A DNA stretch of 64,000 nucleotides, from positions 7,986,001-8,050,000 of the forward strand of contig NZ_CP017641.1 of assembly GCF_001983935.1 (NCBI RefSeq), written 5' to 3'. The number at the start of each line of letters is the position of its first letter. Position 1 is the stretch's first letter. The stretch comes from Fuerstiella marisgermanici (lineage in GTDB: Bacteria > Planctomycetota > Planctomycetia > Planctomycetales > Planctomycetaceae). A program made the translations under genes and the position numbers. Shown piece after piece: positions 34,880 through 54,200 of the stretch. The notes under the pieces were generated by a model. The model was not told the origin of the DNA. It worked only from the letters and a program-made list of their open reading frames with translations, and searched no databases.

Positions 34880-35809
34880 CTACAGGAAGACCCGGCTGTC
34901 AATCCGAAGCTGTACGTCTTCCACCGCCTGCTGCAGGGCTTCCAGCACGTCCGGATAAGTCTGCCGCCGCGGCGAACGGACCTGCACACGCAATCCGTTG
35001 TCTGCAAGGAAGGTCAGGTTGACTCCCGTCGAAGAGCGACGTTTCTGGCGGCGCTGCGCCTTGAGTGTGGCAGCAATGTCGCGCTGCGTCATTCGTCCTT
35101 CAACGGCCTGGGACGCTAGATTCCTCTGCTCTAAAGGATCGCTGACCTTGGTCAGTTCGTAAGCCGTTGCCGCCGCAAGGTCGCCTGTTTGGACCTGCTG
35201 CTGAACATCGTCGGGCAGACTCAATAGAGCCATGGCACGTGTGATTCGCGACGGAGAAATATGCAGGGCAGCGGCCAGCTGTTTCCCGTTCCAGTCGTTG
35301 ATCTGCATCAACTGAGTGTACGCCTCGGCTTCTTCGAGCGGCGTCAGATCTTCCCGCTGCAGGTTTTCCACCAGCTGTTGTTCGAGCGTCGCTGAATTCG
35401 TCAGATCGTTTTCGTGGAAGGAACAGTCAATTGTTTTCAGACCAGCCAGGCGGGCCGCCCGGTAGCGTCGTTCGCCCGAAATGATGATCCAGCTTTTTTG
35501 CTCTTCGTCCCAGCGAACGCGAATGGGTTGCAACTGTCCGGTTTGCTGCAGACTTTCCGCCAACCGAGCCAGCTCGTCATTGTCGAACTGTCGCCGCGGC
35601 TGGTTCGGGTCCGGAATCACGCGATTCAGGTCCAGCGTTCCCAAAGACAATTTTGATCGGCGACCGATATCTTTCTCCGAAGGCACCGGACTGAACTGTG
35701 GTGGATGACTCGGTTCGGTATCGCCTCCCGTCGCCCGCAGAGTTCGCTGTCCCATGGATTCATCCACCTGTGCCCGCAGGGCATCCAGTTTTCGGCGTGT
35801 GGTACTCAT
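34880..35809 (-). CDS. parB: ParB-type partition protein
   Basis: 309 residues from MSTTRRKLDALRAQVDESMG; the ATG overlaps the parA stop (ATGA). The ParB/Spo0J N-terminal domain is clear (DPNQPRRQFDNDELARLAES, QLQPIRVRWD, ISGERRYRAARLAGL), then LVENLQREDLTPLEEAEAY, and a helix-turn-helix (GKQLAAALHISPSRITRAMA). It would bind centromere (parS) sites of the element, load as a CTPase clamp, and work with ParA for segregation. I did not find a convincing parS. Sequence looks like a plasmid-type rather than chromosomal ParB. Confidence 0.93.
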   Translation of the reverse strand: MSTTRRKLDALRAQVDESMGQRTLRATGGDTEPSHPPQFSPVPSEKDIGRRSKLSLGTLDLNRVIPDPNQPRRQFDNDELARLAESLQQTGQLQPIRVRWDEEQKSWIIISGERRYRAARLAGLKTIDCSFHENDLTNSATLEQQLVENLQREDLTPLEEAEAYTQLMQINDWNGKQLAAALHISPSRITRAMALLSLPDDVQQQVQTGDLAAATAYELTKVSDPLEQRNLASQAVEGRMTQRDIAATLKAQRRQKRRSSTGVNLTFLADNGLRVQVRSPRRQTYPDVLEALQQAVEDVQLRIDSRVFL

Positions 35810-36633
35810 CGCATTAAACCTCCTGTGTGCATCGTTTGTCCATCCATTTCGCGAGCGGAACATGCCAGCAGTTCATCGGCCAGTAGACGTGTCATTTGAG
35901 CCGCCACCGAACGCGGCTGATCAAACTCCACGGGCGTGCGTCCCGCCAGCGAAACTTTGAAGGCAGCTGCTTCCGGAAGCACCGACTTCAGCACGGTATC
36001 CGGATACAGCAGGCGGATGCGGTCTTCATACATCCGATGAATCAGCAGTCGTTGATCACGCCGAGTGACCAGATGCCCGAGCAACCGCAGCTCCGGGTTC
36101 AACTGCTGAGCCCATCGAATCGTTTGATGTACGGCCACCAGCCCCTGGGTTCCAAAGTCCTCAGGCGGCACAGGAATTACGACTTCGTCCGCCGCCAGCA
36201 GCGCTGACCAGCTGCAGCGATACAGATTCGGAGGACAGTCGATCAGCACGACGTCAAAGTCCGTCGCCGTCGACAGGAATTCTCGCAGCGCAAACTGCCT
36301 TAATCCCAGTTGTTCGGGATACGGTGTATTGAATGCCGCCAGATGCTGATTGGCGGGAACGAGACTGATGTTTTCGAAGCCGGACGCACGAATCAGCTGC
36401 GTCGCTGATCGATAATTCCGATTCTCACCGAACAGTGCGGCCATGGTCTCGTCAGCAGGCAGCGTTTCGACGGCCACGGATCCAAGGAAACCCTGACTGA
36501 GCGATCCCTGTGGATCCACGTCCAGCAGTAACGTGCGCCGACCTGCCGATGCCAGAGCTCCCGCCAGATGGAAGCAGGTTGTGCTCTTACCACATCCCCC
36601 CTTCTGATTGATGACACAGATTGTCGTGGGCAT
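35806..36633 (-). CDS. parA: ParA-type partition ATPase
   Basis: 275 residues from MPTTICVINQKGGCGKSTTC; GGAG lies six bases before this ATG, and the open frame upstream (to 36873) has no coding character. Deviant Walker A KGGCGKST at about 10-17, LLLDVDPQGSLSQGFLG near 36-52, and VVLIDCPPNL near 125 are all present. No N-terminal HTH, so a type Ib/chromosome-like short ParA. It would drive segregation of the element together with ParB. Transcribed divergently from the replication initiator gene, a usual plasmid arrangement. Confidence 0.94.
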   Translation of the reverse strand: MPTTICVINQKGGCGKSTTCFHLAGALASAGRRTLLLDVDPQGSLSQGFLGSVAVETLPADETMAALFGENRNYRSATQLIRASGFENISLVPANQHLAAFNTPYPEQLGLRQFALREFLSTATDFDVVLIDCPPNLYRCSWSALLAADEVVIPVPPEDFGTQGLVAVHQTIRWAQQLNPELRLLGHLVTRRDQRLLIHRMYEDRIRLLYPDTVLKSVLPEAAAFKVSLAGRTPVEFDQPRSVAAQMTRLLADELLACSAREMDGQTMHTGGLMR

Positions 36634-36842
36634 CGTTCTCCATGAAGTCCATTGGCGATTGCATGTTGCAATCGCCGCCAGGTGCCTGAAATCATTCACT
36701 CCAACCTGCCACAGCACTCCGTTTTCGTCAACGCTGTTGTTGCGACCCGGTGAAACAATTCGTTGGCAGATCGCACAATTCGTGGTACACACATCAGACA
36801 ACAGGGACGGTTGAAGAGATGACAGTTTTGCCACGCTCTTCG

Positions 36843-36960
36843 CCGTTGATTGAACAATGCATGGAGCGACCAACGGGAGCGGACAATCCTCTTCCGAGCG
36901 TCAGCTCGAATCCGCTGCAGGCCGGTGCCTGCCTCGAATTCGCTGCTGGCTGGTGCCTTC
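36843..36960. repeat. partial copy of the 175-bp repeat family
   Basis: Contains GAGCGACCAACGGGAGCGGA, GAGCGTCAGCTC and CCGCTGCAGGCCGGTGCCTG. It lies in the parA/rep divergent region and may have displaced the original rep start region; the 343-bp gap otherwise should contain both promoters. Confidence 0.7.
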
Positions 36961-36976
36961 CCGGTCACTGCTTATC

Positions 36977-38233
36977 GTGAAACGAACAAAGAATCGTCGC
37001 CAAACAGCATCATCGTCGGCCGGATTGGCGCAGCTCTCGCTGCTCGAACACAGTCTGTGTCCGCTGGATACGAAAACGTCACTGACCGAAGGTCTCGCCC
37101 ATGAGGCCTGCTATCGCTATACCACCGCCGCCGGACAACGCTGTACGGCCACGGCCAAACTGCACCTGCCGCTGGGACTGTCGCCTGCCGATGAATTCAC
37201 GTTATGGGGATTACTGGCTCTCACACTACGACAGTCGCAGCCAGACCCGCACTTTGCCGCCACACCGCACTACTGTTTGCGGCAGCTCGGTGTGATTGAT
37301 GCCAGGGGACGACGTGGTGGTAAAAACTATCAGCTGTTTCGTCAGACGCTCCGTCGCCTGAGTTCCGTTTCCTATGAAAACGATGCGTTCTATGACCCGG
37401 TCCGTGGCGAGCACGCCAGCGTGTCGTTCGGATTTCTGAGCTATCGTCTGCCGCATTCCACGACATCCGATCGGCTGTGGCACTTTTACTGGGATCCGGT
37501 GTTCTTTGAATTCTGTACTGCGGCGAAGGGCAGCCTGCTGTTTGATCTCGAAACGTATCGCACACTGAGTCCCGCCGCGAGACGGCTGTTTCTACTGTTA
37601 CACAAGGTGTTCTTTCGCCGCCGTACCTCTCCGGAATTCGCGGTGCGACAGCTGGCCGTTCACACACTCGGGTTTTCCGGTGGGCTGACCAACGGAATTC
37701 TCAATCGAAAGCTCCGGCAAACAGTCGAACCGTTGGCCGACACGGGCGTCATTGCGAATGCTGTTTGGCCGAAGGACCGCGGCATTTCCATGGTTCGCTT
37801 TGATCGCGGACCGTATTTTGAGAATCGACGACAAGGCCGCAGGCAGCTCTCAGTCGCGAGTTCGCCGCTGACCGAGGCCCTGATATCACTGGGGTTCGAA
37901 AGTCGCGATGCGGGGCACATCACGCGCCGCTATCGCCCTTCCCTGCTGCGGGAATGGATCGACATCACGATTGCCGCTCAGGAACGCTTCGGTGCAAAGC
38001 ATTTCAAACGCAGCCCGCAGGCATTTCTGATGCATCACCTCAGCAAAGCGGCCTCTGGTGAATACGCACCGCCGGACTGGTGGCGGGAAATTCAGAAACA
38101 GGAACAGCATCAATCCACAGCGACGTCGCCTCTGCTTCGAAAGCTGGTGCGATCATCCAACGGCAATAGGGAAAATGAGGATCGCCATCAGCCGCCTGTC
38201 CGAATTTCGGAACTGCTCAACATCACCGAATAG
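36977..38233 (+). CDS. plasmid-type replication initiator
   Basis: 418 residues if started at GTG 36977; no in-frame ATG lies between the repeat and the conserved region, and the upstream open frame is repeat sequence. The core reads LPLGLSPADEFTLWGLLALT, RRGGKNYQLFRQTLRRLSSV, DRLWHFYWDPVFFEF, LFDLETYRTLSPAARRLFLL and KVFFRRRTS, the winged-helix pattern of plasmid initiators of the RepA/TrfA type. The gene is followed at 74 nt by DnaA boxes and iterons, where such proteins bind to open the origin. The exact start is uncertain because the 5' end abuts a repeat copy. Confidence 0.75.
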   Translation: MKRTKNRRQTASSSAGLAQLSLLEHSLCPLDTKTSLTEGLAHEACYRYTTAAGQRCTATAKLHLPLGLSPADEFTLWGLLALTLRQSQPDPHFAATPHYCLRQLGVIDARGRRGGKNYQLFRQTLRRLSSVSYENDAFYDPVRGEHASVSFGFLSYRLPHSTTSDRLWHFYWDPVFFEFCTAAKGSLLFDLETYRTLSPAARRLFLLLHKVFFRRRTSPEFAVRQLAVHTLGFSGGLTNGILNRKLRQTVEPLADTGVIANAVWPKDRGISMVRFDRGPYFENRRQGRRQLSVASSPLTEALISLGFESRDAGHITRRYRPSLLREWIDITIAAQERFGAKHFKRSPQAFLMHHLSKAASGEYAPPDWWREIQKQEQHQSTATSPLLRKLVRSSNGNRENEDRHQPPVRISELLNITE

Positions 38234-38306
38234 AAGCGTACGACAGGATGCCGTTCACCGGTCGTGCGATTGCAGATTCCGTCGCCTGCACTCCCTTCAA
38301 AGAAAC

Positions 38307-38548
38307 TTATCCACAAGCAAGTTCTCTCTTTGCTTACGAGTACTCTTTGGATCAGTACTTTGTACAGCCGCAACTCGACGTGGAAATTGGTAATGATTCT
38401 GCCTGTTTATCAACGATGAAAACGCCCCGACGATGACGCAAAGTCCACGTGTCGGGACGCTTTCGATGACGCGAAGTCCACGCATTGTGCCTCCTTGCGA
38501 TGACGCAAAGTCCACGTGTCCCGATGTCATGGGACTCCGTTATCCACA
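38307..38548 (+). other. oriV: plasmid-type origin: iterons between DnaA boxes
   Basis: Two perfect DnaA boxes TTATCCACA lie at 38307-38315 and 38540-38548. Between them are three direct repeats GATGACGC(A/G)AAGTCCACG at 38432-38449, 38465-38482 and 38499-38516 (period 33-34 bp, about three helical turns). A near-match TCATCCACA lies at 38900-38908. Their position directly after a Rep-type gene and close to parAB is the normal layout of an iteron-controlled plasmid origin. No clear AT-rich unwinding region was picked out. Confidence 0.8.
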
Positions 38549-39144
38549 GCCGAAATCCGACATTGAAATGGTCTGCTTCTCATGCCTGTATCAGTCTCTA
38601 CCGCACAGCTTTCCATTGCGCCGCCAGTACGGTAGCGTCGGCCTGTGATGTCCGATTCGGAGCATCACCTGATTGCAGAGGATTCGGTGGACATTGGCGG
38701 CAGGAAGTTGCTGACAGCCATCGCTGACTGAGATTGCATGAACAGCGCGACACACTCGGTAAACTCGAACTCACCATTCGAGCTAAGGGGTCAGCGTTTG
38801 CCTGCTGACAGTGTCGTGCCCGTAGAGCCGGATGCCTGGAGACGGGCTTGTCCGGTTCGACGGAGGCTTGTCGGAGTAATCCCTGTCGATGAACTCATTT
38901 CATCCACAGACCAATCCCGACATTCGATCCGATAACATCTTCGATGTTCTTTCTGGCCGTTGTAAGCCAGGAAGAAGATTGAAGGCTTTGAGCGGCGAGT
39001 TTGGTGAATGGGTATCATTCGTTGCTGGAAGCAGGGCGACGCGGAAAAGCCTGTGATTGTTTTTTCAACACAGGTCGTCGCAGATCAAAGCGGGTGTCTT
39101 CTTATTGACCCGGCGGAATCCGGACGTAAGTCTGTGAGTTTGTC
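38549..39144. other. gene-free stretch between origin and structured RNA
   Basis: No credible gene. It holds the near DnaA box at 38900-38908 and a hairpin at 39048-39072 (CCTGTG and TTG pairing with CAA and CACAGG around a T6 loop). A possible promoter for the structured RNA should lie here, but I cannot point to one with confidence. Confidence 0.5.
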
Positions 39145-40231
39145 GTGTGAGTGAGAACAATCCCGTCCACGGGGTTCGGCCCTGACATCAGGGGCGTTCA
39201 ACGTCGGCCGGCGTGGGGAGCTTTCGGCTGGTGACAGTCGAAACCGGTGCTGATTCCACCGGGGACCGCCTGCAAATCAGGCGGCTGCGAAGAGCTCAAC
39301 CATGAAAGGCGAGTAATCGCTTGCCGGTAAATTGTGTGAGAGACGGTGCCAAACGGCGAAAACCCGTTGCCGACGGGTAAGGGGATGCTTCTTACTTCGG
39401 TCCCCAGAAATCGGTGTCTCCGTATTGCGGAGCCAACCGGAAACTATGCCGACTCGGGAGAGACGGACATACGGCAGCGGTGTCTTCTGCGTAACAGCAG
39501 ATAGCGACGTGACTCACACAATGAAGACTGCGACTAACGCGGGAAGGACTACAGCGGCCGGTGCAGGCTCACCGGTGCGTCGACTGATCTTCGACGTGTT
39601 TCAAATGCTGTAGTTTGGGAGTGTGGCCTGATTAGACAGCGGTTTTGTGTGGAATGATTCCACGAAACCGGCGGTGTTTCCTGCAGGGCAGTGGGAACCC
39701 GTTTGCGATTCCGGGTGGTGCCGGATCTGTGCCGTTCGCGGCACACGCAACGACGAAAGGGCTGACGGGCTTGAGGAATCCGGCGAATGCCGGTCTTCCA
39801 AAGCTGTTCATGTTTTTCTGCAGAAGGCTGTCCGAGGCTTCGGCCTCGGGCGGCGTTTCTGTTGCTGCTGGCGCAGCAGTCATCCAGTGACTCGGGCAGA
39901 GTTCGGGAGAATTCTGCTGGAGTGACGATCTTACATCAATCAGACGAAAGGCAGCAGCGATGGTGTTCTGGCGAATTCCTGAGTTGCAGCAACGGTTTTC
40001 TGTACCACGGGCAGTATGGATTGCGCGGGTGCACAAGAAGAAGTAAGTGCGACCGCGCTGACTTCGACTCGTGCCTTCGCAATTCACTGCTCCTGGGGGT
40101 TCCTGGTAACGCCCCTTGGTTTTTTCATGCTGACGATCTTCAGCAATCGAGACATTCGTCTCCGGCTTTCGCAGTGGTGTGCCGCAAACACCACTGAATT
40201 TTCAGGGCGACCCGCGATGGGTGGCCCTTGC
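39145..40231 (+). ncRNA. candidate large structured RNA (~1.1 kb)
   Basis: The stretch is dense with perfect hairpins and long-range helices and has no convincing gene. GTGTGAGT (39145-39152) pairs with ACTCACAC (39512-39519), closing a ~375-nt domain that contains stems at 39243-39261 and 39265-39283. CTACAGC (39549-39555) pairs with GCTGTAG (39607-39613) around two stems (39558-39575, 39579-39595), a three-way junction. Then come stems at 39649-39663, 39729-39744 and 39832-39849 (the last two with TTCG loops), 39865-39879, 40149-40162, 40172-40196 and 40204-40228. The last ends 14 nt before the 217-aa protein gene. It may be a group II intron-like 5' half or a separate ornate RNA class; no domain V or reverse transcriptase was found. 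Confidence 0.65.
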
Positions 40232-40242
40232 AGCGAGGCAAC

Positions 40243-40896
40243 ATGGAATATCGATGCGTCACAACATCTGTCACCGGATTCGTCCAGCAGATTGCCTGCT
40301 GCTATTTGCGACATGGTTTCTGGTGGTACGTCACGGGAGTGATCCCCGACAACAAAGATCCGAAATCCGTCGACCGCAAACTGATTGACCGATACGGTAT
40401 CGACTGCACCGAATGGAGACGCGCCCGCAACAAGCAGCTTGGTCTGGCAAACCTGCACTATCTTCGTCATGAACACTTCTTCGTGCTGCTCGCCAGCAAA
40501 GGCAATCACGCCTTCTACACCGAGGAATCCGGACAGATCCGCGATATCCGCCGAGTTCCCCTGCGTTACAAAGGCTACTCCATCAGCTACCGCCCCGGTG
40601 GTCGAACTCGCAAAGGAGAGAAAGATCCCCGTTGGCATGCCCACGTGCAGATTGATCAGGAAAAGTATCGGGCACTTAAAAGCTGGTTCGAGGACATTGC
40701 CAATCGCCGGAACGAACAATTCCTGACTGAAGCGCTCAGCAATATTCCCTGGGAGCCCTATGCACCAGTTCGACGGCAGAAACTGCACATTGTTCGAGCG
40801 GTCAACAGGCAGCGAAAAACCTCGGGCAAGTCGCAGATGTCAGCAGACATGATCCGGCTCAAGCGAAGTATCGTGAAGCCGTTCGACTTGGCGTGA
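40243..40896 (+). CDS. RNA-linked protein of unknown function, 217 aa
   Basis: Starts MEYRCVTTSVTGFVQQIACC at ATG 40243 with GAGG five bases upstream. Basic, with no signal peptide or membrane segment. Recognisable blocks: GFWWYVTGVIPDNKDPKSVD, KLIDRYGIDCTEWRRARNKQ, ANLHYLRHEHFFVLLASKGN, HAFYTEESGQIRDIRRVPLR, KGYSISYRPGG, WHAHVQIDQEKYRALKSWF, PWEPYAPVRRQ, IRLKRSIVKPF. I recall similar uncharacterised proteins as multi-copy in planctomycetes, but cannot confirm it here. It directly follows the structured RNA, so it probably binds or works with it. Confidence 0.72.
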   Translation: MEYRCVTTSVTGFVQQIACCYLRHGFWWYVTGVIPDNKDPKSVDRKLIDRYGIDCTEWRRARNKQLGLANLHYLRHEHFFVLLASKGNHAFYTEESGQIRDIRRVPLRYKGYSISYRPGGRTRKGEKDPRWHAHVQIDQEKYRALKSWFEDIANRRNEQFLTEALSNIPWEPYAPVRRQKLHIVRAVNRQRKTSGKSQMSADMIRLKRSIVKPFDLA

Positions 40897-41678: not shown

Positions 41679-41981
41679 ATGTCTCGGAAGAAAAAAACAT
41701 CAGTCAAGAAATCGTCTCGCCGTCAGTACACGGATGAGTTCAAAGAAGAAGCCGTGCAGCTGCTTCTGGATGGGTACACGGCTCCTCAGGTTGTGGACCG
41801 GTTGGGCATTTCAAACGTCAACGTTTTGTATCGCTGGAAACAGGAGCAGCTGGAACAAAGTGGTCCAGTGGCAAGCTCTTTGGAGGCTAAGGTCAAGGAC
41901 CTCGAAGCCGATCTGCGGCGTGTCGAACGTGAGAGGGACATACTAAAAAAAGCGTTGGCTATTTTCGGCCGCAACGAATAG
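41679..41981 (+). CDS. IS3-family transposase OrfA
   Basis: 100 residues. An N-terminal helix-turn-helix (RRQYTDEFKEEAVQLLLDGY, TAPQVVDRLGISNVNVLYRW) is followed by a leucine-zipper-like coiled coil (VASSLEAKVKDLEADLRRVE then RERDILKKALAIF). It binds the IS ends and oligomerises. Near its end the A7G run at 41945-41952 allows -1 frameshifting into orfB to make the OrfAB transposase; OrfA alone usually acts as a regulator. Confidence 0.94.
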   Translation: MSRKKKTSVKKSSRRQYTDEFKEEAVQLLLDGYTAPQVVDRLGISNVNVLYRWKQEQLEQSGPVASSLEAKVKDLEADLRRVERERDILKKALAIFGRNE

Positions 41982-42856
41982 CTGACGTCTATGCGGCCGT
42001 TGAAGCGATTGTTCAGGAAGGTCATGGAAACGTGGCCGAAGTCTGTCGTCATCTCGGTGTGAACCGAACTTCGTTTTATGCCTGGCAGACTGCTGAGCCC
42101 ACGATCTTTGAAGAACAGGATGCTCAACTGGCTCCGTTGATAAGAGTCATCTTTAAGTGTCACCGCCGCCGCTACGGGGCTCGTCGCATTGCCGAAGACC
42201 TCAAGGAAATGGGACTTCCCTGTGATCGCAGGAAGGTCTCGAATGTCATGAAAGCCCTTAAATTAAAGGCAATTCAGCCGAAGTCGTTCGTTCCAAAAAC
42301 GACAGACAGCCGTCATCGACTGGGCTATTCGCCGAACCTGTTGCTCGATGCGGACGCCCCAACAACGATCAATCAAATTTGGGTTGGAGACATTACCTAC
42401 ATCCCGCTGACTGACGGGACGTTTTGCTACATGGCGATGCTGATGGATCTGTTTTCCCGGCGGATCGTTGGTTGGCATCTGGATAACAACATGACGGAAC
42501 AGCTGGTCCTCAAAGCACTGCGTTCGAGCATCAAAGAACGACAGCCTGACGTTGGATTGATTCACCACACGGATCGAGGCGGCCAGTACGCTGGCAATGA
42601 ATACCGATCAATTCTTCGTCGGGCAGCAATCACACAAAGCATGAGCCGTGCTGACAACTGTTATGACAACGCATCCATGGAAAGCTGCTTCGGAACGATC
42701 AAGAACGAACTCGAAATGACCGATTACCAAAGCAAGGCAGAGGCAAGAAGAGAGATGTCAAAATACGTCCGCTACTACGTTCACGAACGCAGACACTCCA
42801 GCCTCGATTACAGGTCGCCAGCTCAGTTCGAACAGATCATCAATCTCCCAAAATAA
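41945..42856 (+). CDS. IS3-family transposase OrfB (frameshift product)
   Basis: Read in the -1 frame relative to orfA and open from the slippery A7G run; an internal ATG at 42032 (MAEVCRHLGVNRTSFYAWQ) is the first Met. The rve integrase core is complete: DITYIPLTDG (first Asp), LIHHTDRGGQY (second Asp) and NASMESCFGTIKNE (Glu). HTH_21-like CHRRRYGARRIAEDL precedes it. Made as an OrfAB fusion, it catalyses copy-out transposition of the element. Confidence 0.94.
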   Translation, partial: KKSVGYFRPQRIADVYAAVEAIVQEGHGNVAEVCRHLGVNRTSFYAWQTAEPTIFEEQDAQLAPLIRVIFKCHRRRYGARRIAEDLKEMGLPCDRRKVSNVMKALKLKAIQPKSFVPKTTDSRHRLGYSPNLLLDADAPTTINQIWVGDITYIPLTDGTFCYMAMLMDLFSRRIVGWHLDNNMTEQLVLKALRSSIKERQPDVGLIHHTDRGGQYAGNEYRSILRRAAITQSMSRADNCYDNASMESCFGTIKNELEMTDYQSKAEARREMSKYVRYYVHERRHSSLDYRSPAQFEQIINLPK

Positions 42857-43932: not shown

Positions 43933-45501
43933 CTATTGACTGGTCCGTTGACGTGCGAGATTGAGTGTTCGAAACAAGCCCCGGGAATGAAATCCGGCGT
44001 CGGCGCAGGTTTGAAGGTCTTCGAGGGCGATTTGCCAGCGGTTCGTGGCCGCGGCGATCTGTCCGCGGGTTTCTCGGAAGGGAAGGTTTTCAGGATCTGC
44101 GGCAACGGCGATATTTGTGAGTTCCCATGCCTCCAGCAGTGATGCGCCTGGAATGTCGGTATGCTGGGTGGAATCGTCCCCGGCATTCGGCAATTCGCCA
44201 GAATCGCTTTCCGAGTTATTCATTTGAAGCAGCGTCCATGCCAGGTTGTTGGCGATGACCGGGTGCCTGGGTGCTACCTCATACGCTTCCTGCAACAGGT
44301 CCCGTGCTGCGACAAAGTCAGCTCGCGCCGCGGCATCAGTTCCGAGAATCAGGGGCACCAGCCACTCGCCATCGCCGGCGAGCAGTGCGGCATGAAATGC
44401 CACAATTGGTCCGGGTACGAAGACTGCCTCGCCCGTTGACGTGTGGAGCGCCTGGGAGCCAGGGTTCAAGTATGCCGCGTCCCATATCGTGGAGTGTTTC
44501 AGCGCCAGAGTGATTTCGTTCAATTGCTGCGCCACCGCTTCGGGTGCCATCATTGACAGCCAAAGGCTGTATCGGCTGATCAGGTGGTCAACCAGCTTCG
44601 GCGACCTTTCATGCTGGCAACCGTCTGCGAGCAGTAGCATGGACTCAAGCAACCGTCCCTGAGCTGCCTGCACTCGACTGAGGGCCAGTCGAGCCACAAC
44701 GTCAGTTGGATCCTCAAGCAGCTCTTTAACCAGAATCGACTCGGCATTTGCAAGGCACTTCTCGGCTTTGCGGGGGTGCTGTAATTGAGCATGTTCAACA
44801 GCAAGCTGTATGTGAATGCCTGCGTGTCCCTTCTGCAGTGGCTCCAGCAGATCCAATGCGTGTTGATGATAGCCTCGTTCTGATATGAACCTGGCCAGCC
44901 TGATCGCCGGTTCCGGATCGTGCGGGGCGGCCGCGGCTTCGTGCTGGAGGGCCAGAGTTGTTGTGAGATCCGTTTTCGGCAAACGCGATCGCCAGAAGCC
45001 GGCCAGAAATTGGTGTGCCGGTATGTAGCCCTTCGACGATCCTCGCCGCGGTGCCAATGACTGCATCAACCTCAGTGAGCGTCGGAGCAGCTCTTCCGTT
45101 GCATTCGTATCGAGCGATTCGTCTGCGGGACTCAGCAGAAACGTATGGTTCGCAGGACCATCGGCTGCAAGGTACAGCTGTTTCGCGAAGTTGAAAGATT
45201 CGGCGAGCCGATCATCGGAGAGCGTGAGGACCCGGGCGAAATATGTTTCGGCTGCTTCCGGGGCGTTTGATTCGATAGCAGCCTGAGAGAGACGAGCGTA
45301 ACGCGCCTTTAAATCAGCTCGCGATTCGTCTGTGTCTGTCTGGCGCAGAATCATGATGATCGTTGCCGTCAACGCCATCGCCGGTATGCCGCATAACAAC
45401 CGGTTTCGATTGCGCGAACGCAGATACCGCACGCAAAATCGTGGCACTCCCATCAGGAAAGCGCTCGGTGAGAGTTTGAATGTCCAGATACAGCGAATCA
45501 T
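43933..45501 (-). CDS. TPR protein of the exosortase locus
   Basis: 522 residues starting MIRCIWTFKLSPSAFLMGVP in an ATGA overlap with the exosortase stop. A membrane segment lies at about 30-52 (LLCGIPAMALTATIIMILRQ), followed by repeated helical pairs of TPR type (DLKARYARLSQAAIESNAPE, AEKCLANAESILVKELLEDP, DVVARLALSRVQAAQGRLLE, DLLQEAYEVAPRHPVIANNL). It is probably a membrane-anchored periplasmic scaffold. Translational coupling to the exosortase supports a joint function in sorting PEP-CTERM proteins. The upstream open frame to 45621 overlaps the exosortase and is not used. Confidence 0.8.
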   Translation of the reverse strand: MIRCIWTFKLSPSAFLMGVPRFCVRYLRSRNRNRLLCGIPAMALTATIIMILRQTDTDESRADLKARYARLSQAAIESNAPEAAETYFARVLTLSDDRLAESFNFAKQLYLAADGPANHTFLLSPADESLDTNATEELLRRSLRLMQSLAPRRGSSKGYIPAHQFLAGFWRSRLPKTDLTTTLALQHEAAAAPHDPEPAIRLARFISERGYHQHALDLLEPLQKGHAGIHIQLAVEHAQLQHPRKAEKCLANAESILVKELLEDPTDVVARLALSRVQAAQGRLLESMLLLADGCQHERSPKLVDHLISRYSLWLSMMAPEAVAQQLNEITLALKHSTIWDAAYLNPGSQALHTSTGEAVFVPGPIVAFHAALLAGDGEWLVPLILGTDAAARADFVAARDLLQEAYEVAPRHPVIANNLAWTLLQMNNSESDSGELPNAGDDSTQHTDIPGASLLEAWELTNIAVAADPENLPFRETRGQIAAATNRWQIALEDLQTCADAGFHSRGLFRTLNLARQRTSQ

Positions 45502-47144
45502 CGATGCTTCCATTGACTTCGTAGCGCAGCAACAACGTCGCCGAGAAGTTGTCGCTCCGCCTGTCGCTCGGATTCGATCGATAAGCCCGATGACCGTTGA
45601 GTCACAAGCCGCACCTGCCACAACGTTGTGGCCTCGGCGTCACCTGTGACTTCGTTGATGTGCCCCTGAATTCGAGCCCTGACACTGGTCGCGTTCGTCG
45701 ACATCGGTGGCGGCGCAGGTTCGCCGTTCGGGTAGCATTCACAGAAGGAGACTCGGCATCGCTGGCCGGCTGGGTTAATCATGCTGACCTGAATAAGAAG
45801 ATCTACTTCCCCATGGCCGGGGAGGCGATGTGTGTCGGTGTCTTCGAATTTCCAGTTCTGTCGTTCATATCCGACTCGCAAATCATGCCAGCCGTGAAGA
45901 GGGCCATCTACCGATAACGCACCGTTGACCGCCGGAGACCGGAACTTCCACGTTTTCGAGTGCCTGCCGAAGAGGCCGCGTTCTTCAGCGCTGGAACGTG
46001 TAAGCTCTTCAAAGCTGTCAACGTGAAACCCCGGCAACATGTCGAACGACGTCGCTGAGAGCGCCTCAAAACCCTGCAGCTGCGATTGGCGAATTTCGGT
46101 AACCTCAGGCGGTGGGGAGCTTGCGACATTCTGGCGAATCGCTGCAGCAGTCACTATTCCCCAATACATGGTGCCGCACACGATGAGAATGGTTGCCAAC
46201 GTGGGGATCAACCTGCGAACGGAAACAAGAATCGCAAACCGAGCTCGTTCCGAACCATACACAAGGAATCGCTTATGCGTGGTGATGATGTCCCAAAGGA
46301 CAGTCGGTGACAAAGTCGTGGACGCGCTGTCTGTGAGTGACTCAGTGTCCTCGATCGATGCCGTCAGAAAATCGAGCAGCGACTTCGTACTGAAGATTCC
46401 GATCAGGGCCAAAAGCATGGTGACCAGACCCACCGCTTCGTGAGGCAGGCCGACGGACAGATCTGCCTGATTGCGTTGATGTGCAACAGCAATAGTGACG
46501 ATCCGAAAAACATTCGCAAGCAGAGACCACCATGCCACGGAAAGCAACAGCGGCACGCTGAGGACAAGACGACTCCCCGAAACCGCTACGTAAAATAATG
46601 TCGCTGCGGTGAACATGTAGACGGAACTGATTCCACTGCAGGCTTCTTCAACGAACAGGCGCCTGCCATCCAGTTCGAGCACGTTGCCCTGCATCACATG
46701 CAGCACATTCAGAAAATCGAGGATTCGGGATGCCTGTTCTGACGACAGCAACTGAAGCCTGTGGACCAGTGCTGCATCAAATCCAAGCGGCAGCGGAATC
46801 AACAGTACAAGCAGACGCCACGTTCGTCGTGCCAGAGGGAAGTGGCAAAGCAGCGAGTCTCCCAGCAACAGAAACGAAACCGCTGCCAGCCACGGCGACC
46901 AGAACCAATACGCAACGGCAAGCACAGGACCGGCAAGTCCAAGACCGACTGGAGCAACACGCCACTGGTGCTTCTCTGGAAACTCAGATTTCGTTATGCG
47001 TTCCCGGGTTACGAATGCAATCGCAAGTATGTAAACCGGAAAAAACTGAAAGTAGTCCCGCGACCAAAGTTGCCGACCATGTTCCAACAGCAACGGCCCG
47101 TACGCGAAGAGGGCGGCAACTGCGAAAATGATCCAGCGATACAT
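45498..47144 (-). CDS. xrtU: exosortase (XrtU-type) with C-terminal extension
   Basis: 548 residues from MYRWIIFAVAALFAYGPLLL. About eight membrane helices in the first 300 residues carry the exosortase triad: Cys169 in EEACSGISS, Arg214 in LLANVFRIV, and His235 in GLPHEAVG. It would cleave PEP-CTERM tails and transfer the protein to an envelope acceptor. The C-terminal ~220 residues, after a further membrane helix (LIPTLATILIVCGTMYWGIV), form an extracytoplasmic domain reminiscent of EpsI-like exosortase partners. The U subtype is assigned from its planctomycete context and is less certain than the family. A PEP-CTERM gene lies next to it. Confidence 0.87.
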   Translation of the reverse strand: MYRWIIFAVAALFAYGPLLLEHGRQLWSRDYFQFFPVYILAIAFVTRERITKSEFPEKHQWRVAPVGLGLAGPVLAVAYWFWSPWLAAVSFLLLGDSLLCHFPLARRTWRLLVLLIPLPLGFDAALVHRLQLLSSEQASRILDFLNVLHVMQGNVLELDGRRLFVEEACSGISSVYMFTAATLFYVAVSGSRLVLSVPLLLSVAWWSLLANVFRIVTIAVAHQRNQADLSVGLPHEAVGLVTMLLALIGIFSTKSLLDFLTASIEDTESLTDSASTTLSPTVLWDIITTHKRFLVYGSERARFAILVSVRRLIPTLATILIVCGTMYWGIVTAAAIRQNVASSPPPEVTEIRQSQLQGFEALSATSFDMLPGFHVDSFEELTRSSAEERGLFGRHSKTWKFRSPAVNGALSVDGPLHGWHDLRVGYERQNWKFEDTDTHRLPGHGEVDLLIQVSMINPAGQRCRVSFCECYPNGEPAPPPMSTNATSVRARIQGHINEVTGDAEATTLWQVRLVTQRSSGLSIESERQAERQLLGDVVAALRSQWKHR

Positions 47145-47301
47145 GGGAGGACACCTGATTGGCAGGTTGGTGAGCAAGCAACGTTGGCAAACCAGCCAAT
47201 TGCCATCCGAATATTCGACGTGCGGATGAGATTCAACGTTTCGAAATAAGATGGCCTCAAAAATGGCAACAGGGGATTTCGACGCCGTTCCTTGAACACC
47301 G

Positions 47302-48253: not shown

Positions 48254-51200
48254 TTACGGCATTAGGACGGAGCCGAATGCTCCGAAGAAATTGTCGATGT
48301 CGTCAAACAACGTGCTGCTGTTGTCGATATCAAACACCGAGTTGTAACCGGCAGAACCGAAGTAAAGGGCGCTAATGAAGTTGCCGTAGTCAGCGCCGTC
48401 CACGTCTCGGTCACCGTCGCTGTCGCCATACAGACGGTGGAAACGAGTCTTCTGCTCCCCGCCGGTGACACCCAGAGCGTCGCCGTCGATGGTCAATTCG
48501 TAGTTGCCGTTTTCCAGACCAACAAATCCGCCGATGTCCACATGAGTTCCGCTGAACGCCAACAGGATCGTGGTTCGGCCGCCGGCTTTGGTTGACGCAG
48601 TCAACGTTACATTGACTGCGTTTCCGGTGCCGAGATGCTGCAGTGCGAACGCAGCAGCGTCAGCAACATCGATTTCGCCATTGACTACCACTTCAACCTG
48701 TCGAATGATCGACCGCTGACCGGTTTCGTCAACACTTAACTGGCGTTCCGCGTCAGCGTCATTATTGAAGAACGTGATGCTCTCAACAGTTGCCGCTGCG
48801 GTGGCGTCGTTGTCATCAGTCTTCGCCGTTAGCCTTGCGGCTGGTACGGAAGTGTATTCGTCGGCCGTTGTTTCTCCGGCAACACTCACGGAAATGATCG
48901 AGGACTGAGTGCCATCCACATCACCATCATCTACACCTGTGACCGTCACCGGCTGAGGCGTATCCCAGTTGTCAGGCGTAAAGGTCAGCGTCGCTCCATC
49001 CGTCACCGCAGCCTCGCCTGTATCACTGCTGGCTACATTCAGGACAACGTTCCCGGTCGGCTTTGATGTCAGCACGACATCGAATGTTGCCGTGGTTGCA
49101 TCTTCGCTGACCGTGACCTGCGACTTCGACAGAATAATCCCCGCAAAATCGTTGTCGAAGAGTAAGACGCTGGCTGTGTCAGCTCCCGTATCAATCGATA
49201 CATTTCCCAAAGCCGTCACACCGTCAAGCTGAACACTCAGGTGATCGGCTCCCCCTTCGGCGACACGATCATCAATCACCGGAATGTTCAACGGAACCGA
49301 CAGCGTCCCGGCCGTAATCGTAACAGTACCTGTTGCTGCCCCGCTAAAATCCTCACCAGCCACCGCCGTTCCGCCCAACGTATAACTGACTTCGACATCC
49401 TGTTGCGCAGCGGCACTGAGAGTCACCAAAAACTGGCCGGAAACCGGGCCGGATTCACTACCATTACTTACAGCCGACACACCGACGGTGGCGCTCTCGT
49501 CGTCGGTGACATCCAGCGTATCGGTGCCGTCGGCATGAGCGGCAGCCGAAGCCGTGATAGTCACCGTCTGGGTGCCGTCGACAATGGCGTCATCCACCCC
49601 TGTGATGCTGAAGGTGGCCGATGTCTGGCCGGCAAGAATGGTGACCGTGGCCGGAACACCCGCTTCCCCTGTATCGTTGCTGGAGAGGTTGATGGTCAGG
49701 GCGTTGGTGGTATCCGTGTTGCGAGAGACCGTGCCGGTGGTGGTGCCACCGTTCTCACTGATGGCTGCATCCGTAATGCTGACCGTCAGAGCGGCCGCAT
49801 CATCGTCGGTCACATCCAGCGTATCGGTACCGTCGGTGTGAGCGGCAGCGGAAGCCGTGATGGTCACCGTCTGGGTGCCGTCGACAATGGCGTCATCCAC
49901 CCCTGTGATGCTGAAGGTGGCCGATGTCTGGCCGGCAAGAATGGTGACCGTGGCCGGAACACCCGCTTCCCCTGTATCGTTGCTGGAGAGGTTGATGGTC
50001 AGGGCGTTGGTGGTATCCGTGTTGCGAGAGACCGTGCCGGTGGTGGTGCCACCGTTCTCACTGATGGCTGCATCCGTAATGCTGACCATCAGAGCGGCCG
50101 CATCATCGTCGGTCACATCCAGCGTATCGGTACCGTCGGTGTGAGCGGCAGCGGAAGCCGTGATGGTCACCGTCTGGGTGCCGTCGACAATGGCGTCATC
50201 CACCCCTGTGATGCTGAAGGTGGCCGATGTCTGGCCGGCAAGAATGGTGACCGTGGCCGGAACACCCGCTTCCCCTGTATCGTTGCTGGAGAGGTTGATG
50301 GTCAGGGCGTTGGTGGTATCCGTGTTGCGAGAGACCGTGCCGGTGGTGGTGCCACCGTTCTCACTGATGGCTGCATCCGTAATGCTGACCGTCAGAGCGG
50401 CCGCATCATCGTCGGTCACATCCAGCGTATCGGTGCCATCGGCATGAGCGGCAGCGGAAGCCGTGATGGTCACCGTCTGGGTGCCGTCGACAATGGCGTC
50501 ATCCACCCCTGTGATGCTGAAGGTGGCCGATGTCTGGCCGGCAAGAATGGTGACCGTGGCCGGAACACCCGCTTCCCCTGTATCGTTGCTGGAGAGGTTG
50601 ATGGTCAGGGCGTTGGTGGTATCCGTGTTGCGAGAGACCGTGCCGGTGGTGGTGCCACCGTTCTCACTGATGGCTGCATCCGTAATGCTGACCGTCAGAG
50701 CGGCCGCATCATCGTCGGTCACATCCAGCGTATCGGTACCGTCGGTGTGAGCGGCAGCGGAAGCCGTGATGGTCACCGTCTGCGTGCCGTCAACAATCGC
50801 GTCATCAACGCCGGTAATGGTGAAGGCGGGTGACGTGGTCTGTCCGGCAGCAATCGTGACCGTGCCGATGACCGTCGCTTCGCTGGTATCGTTACTGACC
50901 AGCGTGACCGTCAGAGCATTCGTAGTATCCGTGTTGCGGGAAACGGTCGCCGTGGTGGTGCCTCCGTTTTCACTGATGGCTGCATCCGTAATGCTGACCG
51001 TCAGAGCGGCCGCATCATCATCGGTGACATCCAGCGTGTCGGTTCCGTCAGCATGAGCGGCAGCGGAAGCCGTGATGGTCACCGTCTGGGTGCCGTCGAC
51101 AATGGCGTCATCAACGCCTGTGATGCTGAAGGTGGCCGATGTCTGGCCGGCAAGAATGGTGACCGTGGCCGGAACACCCGCTTCCCCTGTATCGTTGCTG

Positions 51201-54200
51201 GAGAGGTTGATGGTCAGGGCGTCGGTGGTGTCGGTGTTGCGAGAGACCGTGGCCGTGGTGGTGCCACCGTTCTCACTGATGGCTGCATCCGTAATGCTGA
51301 CCGTCAGAGCGGCCGCATCATCGTCAGTGACATCCAGCGTGTCGGTACCATCGACGTGGGCGTTTGCCTGAGCCGTGATGGTGACGGTCTGGGTGCCGTC
51401 GACGATGGCGTCATCGACGGCCGTGATGTCGAAGGCGGGTGACGTGGTCTGTCCGGCAGCAATCGTGACCGTGCCGATGACCGTCGCTTCGCTGGTATCG
51501 TTACTGACCAGCGTGACCGTCAGAGCATTCGTAGTATCCGTGTTGCGGGAAACGGTCGCCGTGGTGGTGCCTCCGTTTTCACTGATGGCTGCATCCGTAA
51601 TGCTGACCGTCAGAGCGGCCGCATCATCATCGGTGACATCCAGCGTGTCGGTTCCGTCAGCATGAGCGGCAGCCGAAGCCGTGATGGTGACCGTCTGCGT
51701 GCCGTCAACAATCGCGTCATCAACGCCTGTGATGCTGAAGGTGGCCGATGTCTGGCCGGCAAGAATGGTGACCGTGGCCGGAACACCCGCTTCCCCTGTA
51801 TCGTTGCTGGAGAGGTTGATGGTCAGGGCGTCGGTGGTGTCGGTGTTGCGAGAGACCGTGGCCGTGGTGGTGCCACCGTTCTCACTGATGGCTGCATCCG
51901 TAATGCTGACCGTCAGAGCGGCCGCATCATCGTCAGTGACATCCAGCGTGTCGGTACCATCGACGTGAGCGGCAGCGGAAGCCGTGATGGTCACCGTCTG
52001 CGTGCCGTCAACAATCGCGTCATCAACGCCGGTAATGGTGAAGGCGGGTGACGTGGTCTGTCCGGCAGCAATCGTGACCGTGCCGATGACCGTCGCTTCG
52101 CTGGTATCGTTACTGACCAGCGTGACCGTCAGAGCATTCGTAGTATCCGTGTTGCGGGAAACGGTCGCCGTGGTGGTGCCACCGTTCTCACTGATGGCTG
52201 CATCCGTAATGCTGACCGTCAGAGCGGCCGCATCATCATCGGTGACATCCAGCGTGTCGGTTCCGTCAGCATGAGCGGCAGCCGAAGCCGTGATGGTGAC
52301 CGTCTGCGTGCCGTCAACAATCGCGTCATCAACGCCTGTGATGCTGAAGGTGGCCGATGTCTGGCCGGCAAGAATGGTGACCGTGGCCGGAACACCCGCT
52401 TCCCCTGTATCGTTGCTGGAGAGGTTGATGGTCAGGGCGTCGGTGGTGTCGGTGTTGCGAGAGACCGTGGCCGTGGTGGTGCCACCGTTCTCACTGATGG
52501 CTGCATCCGTAATGCTGACCGTCAGAGCGGCCGCATCATCATCGGTGACATCCAGCGTGTCGGTTCCGTCAGCATGAGCGGCAGCCGAAGCCGTGATGGT
52601 GACCGTCTGCGTGCCGTCAACAATCGCGTCATCAACGCCTGTGATGCTGAAGGTGGCCGATGTCTGGCCGGCAAGAATGGTGACCGTGGCCGGAACACCC
52701 GCTTCCCCTGTATCGTTGCTGGAGAGGTTGATGGTCAGGGCGTTGGTGGTATCCGTGTTGCGAGAGACCGTGCCGGTGGTGGTGCCACCGTTCTCACTGA
52801 TGGCTGCATCCGTAATGCTGACCGTCAGAGCGGCCGCATCATCGTCGGTCACATCCAGCGTATCGGTACCGTCGGTGTGAGCGGCAGCGGAAGCCGTGAT
52901 GGTCACCGTCTGGGTGCCGTCGACAATGGCGTCATCCACCCCTGTGATGCTGAAGGTGGCCGATGTCTGGCCGGCAAGAATGGTGACCGTGGCCGGAACA
53001 CCCGCTTCCCCTGTATCGTTGCTGGAGAGGTTGATGGTCAGGGCGTTGGTGGTATCCGTGTTGCGAGAGACCGTGCCGGTGGTGGTGCCACCGTTCTCAC
53101 TGATGGCTGCATCCGTAATGCTGACCGTCAGAGCGGCCGCATCATCGTCGGTGACATCCAGCGTATCGGTACCGTCGGTGTGAGCGGCAGCGGAAGCCGT
53201 GATGGTCACCGTCTGGGTGCCGTCGACAATGGCGTCATCCACCCCTGTGATGCTGAAGGTGGCCGATGTCTGGCCGGCAAGAATGGTGACCGTGGCCGGA
53301 ACACCCGCTTCCCCTGTATCGTTGCTGGAGAGGTTGATGGTCAGGGCGTTGGTGGTATCCGTGTTGCGAGAGACCGTGCCGGTGGTGGTGCCACCGTTCT
53401 CACTGATGGCTGCATCCGTAATGCTGACCATCAGAGCGGCCGCATCATCGTCGGTCACATCCAGCGTATCGGTACCGTCGGTGTGAGCGGCAGCGGAAGC
53501 CGTGATGGTCACCGTCTGGGTGCCGTCGACAATGGCGTCATCCACCCCTGTGATGCTGAAGGTGGCCGATGTCTGGCCGGCAAGAATGGTGACCGTGGCC
53601 GGAACACCCGCTTCCCCTGTATCGTTGCTGGAGAGGTTGATGGTCAGGGCGTTGGTGGTATCCGTGTTGCGAGAGACCGTGCCGGTGGTGGTGCCACCGT
53701 TCTCACTGATGGCTGCATCCGTAATGCTGACCGTCAGAGCGGCCGCATCATCGTCGGTCACATCCAGCGTATCGGTGCCATCGGCATGAGCGGCAGCGGA
53801 AGCCGTGATGGTCACCGTCTGGGTGCCGTCGACAATGGCGTCATCCACCCCTGTGATGCTGAAGGTGGCCGATGTCTGGCCGGCAAGAATGGTGACCGTG
53901 GCCGGAACACCCGCTTCCCCTGTATCGTTGCTGGAGAGGTTGATGGTCAGGGCGTTGGTGGTATCCGTGTTGCGAGAGACCGTGCCGGTGGTGGTGCCAC
54001 CGTTCTCACTGATGGCTGCATCCGTAATGCTGACCGTCAGAGCGGCCGCATCATCATCGGTGACATCCAGCGTGTCGGTTCCGTCAGCATGAGCGGCAGC
54101 CGAAGCCGTGATGGTGACCGTCTGCGTGCCGTCAACAATCGCGTCATCAACGCCTGTGATGCTGAAGGTGGCCGATGTCTGGCCGGCAAGAATGGTGACC

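What the first reader, a model, noticed from the sequence alone, without database searches (positions are those of the whole stretch)
39145..40896. Possible new RNA-protein unit: ~1.1 kb ornate RNA followed by a 217-aa basic protein
Seen: at least a dozen perfect hairpins, an 8-bp long-range helix closing a ~375-nt domain, a clean three-way junction, two TTCG-loop stems of at least 6 bp, and a final hairpin 14 nt before the ATG of the 217-aa gene. Known: large ornate RNAs (OLE, GOLLD, ROOL, HEARO) and group II introns look like this, and some have a dedicated protein partner. Inference: RNA and protein form one unit, perhaps mobile, placed in an accessory region beside an origin. No reverse transcriptase, HNH or RuvC gene and no domain V hairpin was seen, so standard group II introns and IscB-like systems do not explain it.
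Basis: partly seen in the sequence, partly recalled or inferred. Interest (0 to 1): 0.85.

Follow-up and report, generated by a model that had tools for sequence, protein, structure and literature searches.

The report
Back-to-front intron with shrunken maturase partner
The large folded RNA looks like a rearranged self-splicing intron that should cut out a small RNA circle, and the protein encoded right after it looks like a shrunken, catalytically dead version of the helper enzyme such introns normally carry, which would explain a protein family of unknown function.

Summary
The RNA is real, but it is not a new class. It is a circularly permuted (CP) group II ribozyme, the class of Roth et al. 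2021. Then come a predicted 100-nt excised circle (38934-39033), the CP-type 5' splice site GGGCG at 39034, and D1-D4. The same order precedes the 217-aa gene, on the same strand, in 13 of 13 loci with enough upstream DNA (planctomycetes, cyanobacteria, one Planococcus plasmid). Covariation is strong: 23 of 28 D5-D6 pairs and 87 of 130 body pairs change on both sides.

The protein is a remote homologue of AcpG, the CP-associated protein without known relatives (profile score 62.8; best of 100 shuffles 20.1). AlphaFold models of it and of a 52%-identical relative both match group II intron reverse transcriptase/maturases best in the VIA-align comparison (Z 10.0 and 9.0 over about 200 residues). 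The YADD aspartates are gone in 14 of 14. So it is probably a miniaturised, dead maturase. This link rests on predicted folds, middling Foldseek scores and weak sequence evidence.

The parts
38740..38822 (+). Stems 5' of D5, corresponding in position to P1/P2 of CP group II RNAs
   Evidence: 13 of 15 consensus pairs change on both sides in 9 loci, 84.6% of cells paired; 200 shuffles mean 6.5, max 10; slid 2-7
38823..38859 (+). Domain 5: GAGC start, GAGA loop, UU bulge
   Evidence: Rfam RF00029; covariation in 12 loci
38862..38933 (+). Domain 6; unpaired branch A at 38927; 3' splice site after 38933
   Evidence: Covariation helices 2-4; branch A and splice site by homology to the mapped CP sites, not tested
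38934..39033 (+). Predicted excised 100-nt RNA circle; last six bases GAAGCA are the predicted IBS1
   Evidence: Linker between D6 end and GGGCGA; the same rule gives 32 nt on pPNAP05, the published value
39034..39038 (+). GGGCG, CP-type 5' splice site and start of D1
   Evidence: GGGCGA present in 12 of 12 loci and in L019; motif from PMC8637638
39034..39622 (+). D1 and neighbouring helices; predicted EBS1 TGCTTC at 39386-39391
   Evidence: 87 of 130 pairs with both-sided changes for block 39159-39770; IBS1-EBS1 test. Domain borders are by order only
39623..39770 (+). Helices in the D2-D3 position
   Evidence: Covarying helices 39625-39629/39759-39763 and 39678-39684/39691-39697; assignment by position only
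39771..40227 (+). 3' part in the D4 position, ends in a hairpin 15 nt before the ATG
   Evidence: Variable in the alignment; hairpin by eye; no covariation test of its own
40243..40896 (+). acpG-like gene, 217 aa, predicted dead mini-maturase
38431..38520 (+). Three 23-nt direct repeats, iteron-like (context)
36857..38233 (+). 458-aa RepA-like protein (context)
   Evidence: blastp to pK2D_1 RepA E 2e-6 over 71 aa; 49% identical ORF beside L004's CP RNA; no Pfam hit
35806..36873 (-). ParA (context)
   Evidence: PF13614 E 3e-35
34880..35863 (-). ParB (context)
   Evidence: PF02195 E 7e-22

Best explanation
A circularly permuted group II ribozyme with a dedicated, cis-encoded, reduced maturase. 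The transcript reads 5' stems - D5 - D6 - linker - D1 - D2 - D3 - D4 - acpG. The branch A (38927) attacks the downstream 5' splice site (39034), and the freed linker end attacks the upstream 3' splice site (after 38933). This releases a circle of about 100 nt and leaves a 2'-5' branched RNA whose 3' arm carries the acpG message. The protein is a group II intron RT that lost the fingers, much of the middle and the catalytic aspartates but kept a palm and thumb. It most likely binds the ribozyme as a maturase binds its intron and steadies the permuted fold in the cell. The unit sits in plasmid-type replication/partition regions; the benefit to plasmid or host is unknown. Shown: RNA family, order, covariation, AcpG homology, synteny. 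Inferred: splicing here, RT ancestry and maturase role.
For: Rfam D5-D6 hit upstream of the rest. Same order and strand in 13 of 13 loci. GGGCGA after D6 in 13 of 13. Covariation: 23 of 28 and 87 of 130 pairs. IBS1-EBS1 complementarity over 9 loci beats 2000 of 2000 shuffled sets, locus permutation p 0.02. In 392 phylum genomes the 7 with the protein are among the 8 with a high-scoring CP D5-D6. Protein to Thermus AcpG by profile: P 1.4e-8, score 62.8, 100 shuffles at most 20.1. VIA-align: group II intron RTs in rows 1-6 (Z 10.0-9.1) and rows 1-5 (Z 9.0-8.5) for two models. The only local profile alignment to intron RTs puts invariant R75 and G111 on the R of RYADD and the G of FLG.
Against: No splicing was measured. 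The two AlphaFold models rest on 5 sequences each and are of related proteins, so they are not independent. Foldseek gives no hit below E 0.001 for either model, with low TM-scores (best hits 1.7e-3 and 1.1e-2, TMq 0.26 and 0.30); the tool notes a best Z of 7-8 as usual for models without a clear match. Sequence match to intron RTs is weak (P 0.018 and E 0.045), gone with the merged 20-sequence profile (0.23 and 0.29), and weak or absent for Thermus AcpG (0.36 and 0.064). No RT family hit in Pfam for any of 14 members at E 0.5. The circle (100 nt) is longer than the published 15-86 range. Seven of the eight high-scoring genomes trained the model. The loci were gathered by the protein, so 13 of 13 says little about CP RNAs without it; Roth et al. 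report many. Model R1 found nothing in pTT8 and five other Thermus stretches.
Confidence: 0.75

Rival explanations
1. CP group II ribozyme plus AcpG, but AcpG is not RT-derived. The fold match reflects AlphaFold bias or a shared ferredoxin-like palm; AcpG is an unrelated nucleic-acid-binding plasmid protein.
For: Foldseek E above 0.001, weak or absent sequence signal, shallow alignments.
Against: In VIA-align the RT/spliceosome rows fill ranks 1-37 in one model, and palm polymerases or spliceosome rows ranks 1-46 in the other; alignments cover palm and thumb in order over about 200 residues. The predicted hairpin 71-76/79-85 turns where the YADD turn should be by the profile alignment.
Confidence: 0.22
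2. The unit serves its plasmid: the ribozyme or its branched product with AcpG acts in replication, copy control or maintenance, and splicing is a side activity.
For: Rep, ParA or ParB genes within about 10 kb in 10 of 13 loci; iteron-like repeats beside the RNA; pPNAP05 CP RNA near its origin.
Against: Nearly all of the pTT8 CP RNA can be deleted without loss of replication (reported in PMC8637638). None found in G002 and G242; no random-window control was run.
Confidence: 0.3
3. Decayed remnant of an ordinary group II intron, rearranged by chance, next to an unrelated gene.
For: The genome holds 11 matches to the group II maturase domain, so source material exists.
Against: Same order, motifs and gene in 13 loci with compensatory changes; the gene is an open frame in each of them.
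Confidence: 0.03
4. New ornate RNA class unrelated to introns, as first proposed.
For: No Rfam match within 39145-40896 except one at E 2.8.
Against: D5-D6, GGGCG, IBS1-EBS1 and covariation with published CP order.
Confidence: 0.02

Closest known systems
CP group II RNA, Roth et al. 2021 (PMC8637638)
   Same: D5-D6-linker-D1-D4 order, GGGCG and NU splice sites, stems 5' of D5, plasmid-type setting near replication genes
   Different: Window linker is 100 nt against 15-86; gene always 3' and on the same strand in the 13 loci, where Roth et al. saw all orientations; planctomycetes and cyanobacteria are not named in the main text (supplement not seen)
AcpG (TTHC007), the CP-associated protein
   Same: Profile homology over 173 columns, beside a CP RNA
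   Different: 217 aa against about 260; 17-20% identity; not divergent from the RNA as on pTT8
Group II intron RT/maturase
   Same: Best fold match by VIA-align; palm hairpin and thumb in order
   Different: About half the length, no YADD, encoded 3' of D4 and not inside it
Prp8 of the spliceosome
   Same: Also a dead RT-like scaffold of a group II-related ribozyme (recalled); 4i43_B Z 8.0 and 8.1
   Different: Huge eukaryotic protein with many added domains
OLE, GOLLD, ROOL, HEARO RNAs
   Same: Large, structured, some with a protein partner (recalled)
   Different: No match to these families in the Rfam scans

Membership tests
CP group II RNA | D5-D6 upstream of D1-D4 on one strand | tested here: met
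CP group II RNA | GGGCG 5' and NU 3' splice-site motifs around the linker | tested here: met
   GGGCG 39034 and AT 38932-38933
CP group II RNA | Unpaired branch A in D6 | tested here: met
   A38927 lies in the unpaired stretch between helices 2 and 3
CP group II RNA | EBS1 loop in D1 complementary to the linker end | tested here: met
   GAAGCA with TGCTTC in the window; over 9 loci. Only 5 of 6 pairs in L005 and L016, and mostly weak pairs in L025
CP group II RNA | Stems 5' of D5 (P1, P2) | tested here: met
   13 of 15 pairs covary
CP group II RNA | P2-D2 and P1-3' end loop pseudoknots | not tested
   No pseudoknot count was made
CP group II RNA | Circle of 15-86 nt | tested here: not met
   100 nt here; 12-100 nt among 12 loci. 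A range of known members, not a defining rule
CP group II RNA | Back-splicing to a circle and a branched RNA | not testable with these tools
   needs in vitro transcription
AcpG | Homology to TTHC007 of pTT8 | tested here: met
   blastp E 1.7 but profile P 1.4e-8 and 100 shuffles lower
AcpG | Gene close to a CP RNA | tested here: met
   13 of 13 loci
Active group II intron RT | YADD catalytic box | tested here: not met
   Aspartate pair absent in 14 of 14
Active group II intron RT | Pfam RVT_1 or GIIM sequence match | tested here: not met
   No such family at E 0.5 in 14 members
Group II RT-derived (maturase-like) scaffold | RT palm and thumb fold | tested here: inconclusive
   Predicted models only: Z 10.0 (200 residues, rmsd 4.1) and 9.0 (199, 4.0); Foldseek E 1.7e-3 and, for the second model, a retron RT at 1.1e-2
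Group II RT-derived (maturase-like) scaffold | Sequence homology to intron RTs | tested here: inconclusive
   P 0.018 and E 0.045, no shuffle of 100 higher; merged profile 0.23 and 0.29

The most novel reading that the evidence does not exclude
The whole AcpG family is a bacterial counterpart of Prp8: a group II intron RT that died as an enzyme and survives as the protein scaffold of a rearranged group II ribozyme that no longer splices itself out. [quoted passage not shown]
Probability: 0.6. Interest if true: 0.87.

Novelty: new variant of a known kind. Interest (0 to 1): 0.72.

Why it matters
Roth et al. state that intron-encoded proteins are never seen in or near CP group II RNAs and that AcpG has no known relatives and no known role. 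If AcpG is a dead, shrunken maturase, the missing protein partner has been in view all along and the family gains a testable function. It would also be a small bacterial parallel to the step by which an intron RT is thought to have become Prp8, the core protein of the spliceosome (recalled).

Tried and rejected
New RNA class: rejected on D5-D6 and splice-site evidence. The 5' splice site at GTGTG 39145 (reader), then at GTGTC 39094 (mine): the second was held until I read that the mapped CP site is GGGCG. With it fell my idea of a conserved element inside the circle.

An active RT or any other named domain in the 217-aa protein: no Pfam match over its cut-off, no NCBIfam match, no PDB sequence match better than E 0.04. 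PHROGs and PADLOC were not searched.

Rows dropped: L013, L014 (same places as L026, L027) were protein hits at E 5e-4 and 8e-4 in an unrelated ORF; left out of all counts. L003 and L006 lack upstream DNA and are not among the 13. L019 is not in the covariation sets; L017, L018 and L024 are not in the 9-locus body set. In one search the D1-head test lost 2 of 9 rows to my own motif search, so its 15 of 19 pairs rest on 7 loci and are not used elsewhere.

Misses: permissive Rfam gave no D5 in L004, L005, L015, L018, L019, L021, L024, L025. The hairpin was then found by stem search (L004, L005, L018, L021), local alignment (L024, L025) and model R1 (L019). In L015 (pTT8) it is recognised only by eye, and R1 finds nothing in L015 and L028-L032. 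Viral contigs: no relative in 5 scans. pPNAP05: 14 of 58.8 kb read, no AcpG profile hit (E 0.28 at best). A local profile run was made in a wrong mode and repeated.

Full report
WHAT IS THERE. The stretch is far more structured than chance (z -8.3, 20 shuffles). Rfam finds group II domains 5 and 6 at 38823-38933 (44.8 bits, cut-off 40), upstream of the rest. [quoted passage not shown] 2021 (PMC8637638). Of that paper I read the abstract, part 1 of 5 of the Results, sections 9, 10, 12, 14-17, the whole Discussion and searched passages; its supplement could not be opened.

RELATIVES. Relatives of the 217-aa protein came from genome contigs (4 loci), from 392 genomes drawn from the same phylum (9 with a hit, the window's own included; 7 confirmed by profile, 2 false) and from plasmids (7 records, 4 of them near-identical Leptolyngbya). 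Thirteen loci, the window included, have enough upstream DNA. All 13 have a D5-type hairpin on the same strand 0.8-1.7 kb before the gene, then D6 and a GGGCGA motif. The named ones are planctomycetes, two cyanobacteria and a Planococcus plasmid.

COVARIATION. D5-D6, 12 loci: 23 of 28 pairs change on both sides and 95.2% of cells pair; 0 of 500 shuffles reach this; slid versions give 4-9 pairs. Body 39159-39770, 9 loci: 87 of 130 pairs, 91.0% paired; 300 shuffles mean 47.6, max 59; slid 23-41. Stems 5' of D5, 9 loci: 13 of 15. The structures were derived from these alignments, so the shuffled and slid versions are the yardstick.

SPLICE SITES. Roth et al. mapped NU (3') and GGGCG (5'). On pPNAP05 the rule 'from D6 end to GGGCG' gives 32 nt, the published length. 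In the window it gives 38934-39033, 100 nt, beyond their 15-86. Predicted IBS1 GAAGCA (39028-39033) pairs fully with TGCTTC (39386-39391) in a D1 hairpin loop. Over 9 loci the complementarity exceeds all 2000 shuffled IBS sets, and permuted loci reach it with p 0.02; L005 and L016 have 5 of 6 pairs.

CO-OCCURRENCE. A D5-D6 covariance model on the same 392 genomes matches 38 at E 0.001: 8 at 85-107 bits, the rest at or below 47. The 8 contain all 7 genomes with the protein. The eighth lies on a contig ending about 400 nt after D6, so its gene cannot be seen. Seven of the eight trained the model; only the eighth is an independent find. The model also hits pPNAP05, a plasmid whose CP RNA was tested by Roth et al. 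(36.4 bits, E 2.6e-7), but not pTT8.

THE PROTEIN. It does not match Thermus AcpG by blastp (E 1.7). Profile against profile it does: P 1.4e-8 over 173 columns, score 62.8 against at most 20.1 in 100 column shuffles. It is a remote AcpG. AlphaFold models of it (pLDDT 80.2, pTM 0.72) and of a 52%-identical relative (80.2, 0.71), each from 5 sequences, were compared with the PDB. Foldseek's best hits are a group II intron RT, 8h2h_D, E 1.7e-3, and a retron RT, 1.1e-2, both with low TM-scores. VIA-align 2, a second look at Foldseek's list, puts group II intron RT/maturases in rows 1-6 (Z 10.0-9.1) and rows 1-5 (9.0-8.5), followed by other RTs and spliceosome chains that I take to be Prp8 (only two entries are so titled). 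The first row outside RTs and spliceosomes is rank 38 (Z 7.3, 72 residues) in one list; the first outside these and viral polymerases is rank 47 (Z 5.1) in the other. About 200 residues align, from palm to thumb; the first 120 or so residues of 8h2h_D, the fingers by my knowledge, are not covered.

REGISTER. Sequence comparison with canonical intron proteins of related genomes is weak: P 0.018 with 4, E 0.045 with 14 and no shuffle of 100 higher. It fades with the merged 20-sequence profile (0.23 and 0.29) and is 0.36 and 0.064 for Thermus AcpG alone. Where it aligns, YLRHEHFFVLL falls on MVRYADDFVIL and RYKGYSIS on DFLGYTFQ: R75 and G111, invariant in 14 of 14, fall on the R of RYADD and the G of FLG, invariant in 4 of 4. 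The aspartate pair of YADD is absent in 14 of 14. By eye, the strand before PDNKDP takes the place of motif A and also lacks its aspartate. If it is an RT, it is a dead one.

CONTEXT. Rep, ParA or ParB genes lie within about 10 kb in 10 of the 13 loci (window, pK2D_1, Leptolyngbya, Calothrix, L004, L005, G105, G216, G266 by tblastn, and the Planococcus plasmid by annotation), about 12.5 kb away in G270, and were not found in G002 and G242. Flanks differ in length and no random-window control was run. The window has a RepA-like gene, three 23-nt direct repeats and ParAB just upstream. Of 8 same-genus genomes only this one has the RNA.

WHAT IT WORKS LIKE, AND WHAT IT IS. It works like a back-splicing ribozyme with a maturase-like partner encoded on the 3' arm of its own transcript. 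Membership in the CP group II class is met on the tested sequence and order features, apart from a linker somewhat longer than any published; activity was not tested. AcpG membership is met. Membership among active intron RTs is refuted; RT ancestry is likely but rests on predictions.

NOVELTY. Library searches for circularly permuted group II with intron (14 papers, listing only), AcpG with group II, TTHC007, AcpG with maturase, and CP group II with ribozyme and circular gave, to judge by the listings, no paper on AcpG other than Roth 2021; subscription papers are mostly not held. New here as far as I can see: planctomycete and cyanobacterial members with a fixed RNA-then-acpG order, and the proposal that AcpG is a reduced maturase.

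Noticed in passing
L018:1610-1713 and L018:3761-3855: The Calothrix plasmid carries two CP-type D5-D6 units about 2 kb apart on one strand (90.8 and 101.3 bits).
   Followed up: no
window 41679-42856: IS3-type transposase genes (rve domain; 100-aa ORF before it) about 0.8 kb downstream of the acpG-like gene.
   Followed up: no
window 34880-38520: ParA, ParB, a RepA-like gene and three iteron-like repeats in a single 8.9-Mb contig: perhaps an integrated plasmid replicon.
   Followed up: partly
G000 (window genome): Eleven matches to the group II maturase domain PF08388; ordinary introns coexist with the CP RNA.
   Followed up: no
window 45498-47177: Exosortase EpsH-type gene (PF09721).
   Followed up: no
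window 48254-63961: A 5235-aa open frame on the minus strand; not examined.
   Followed up: no
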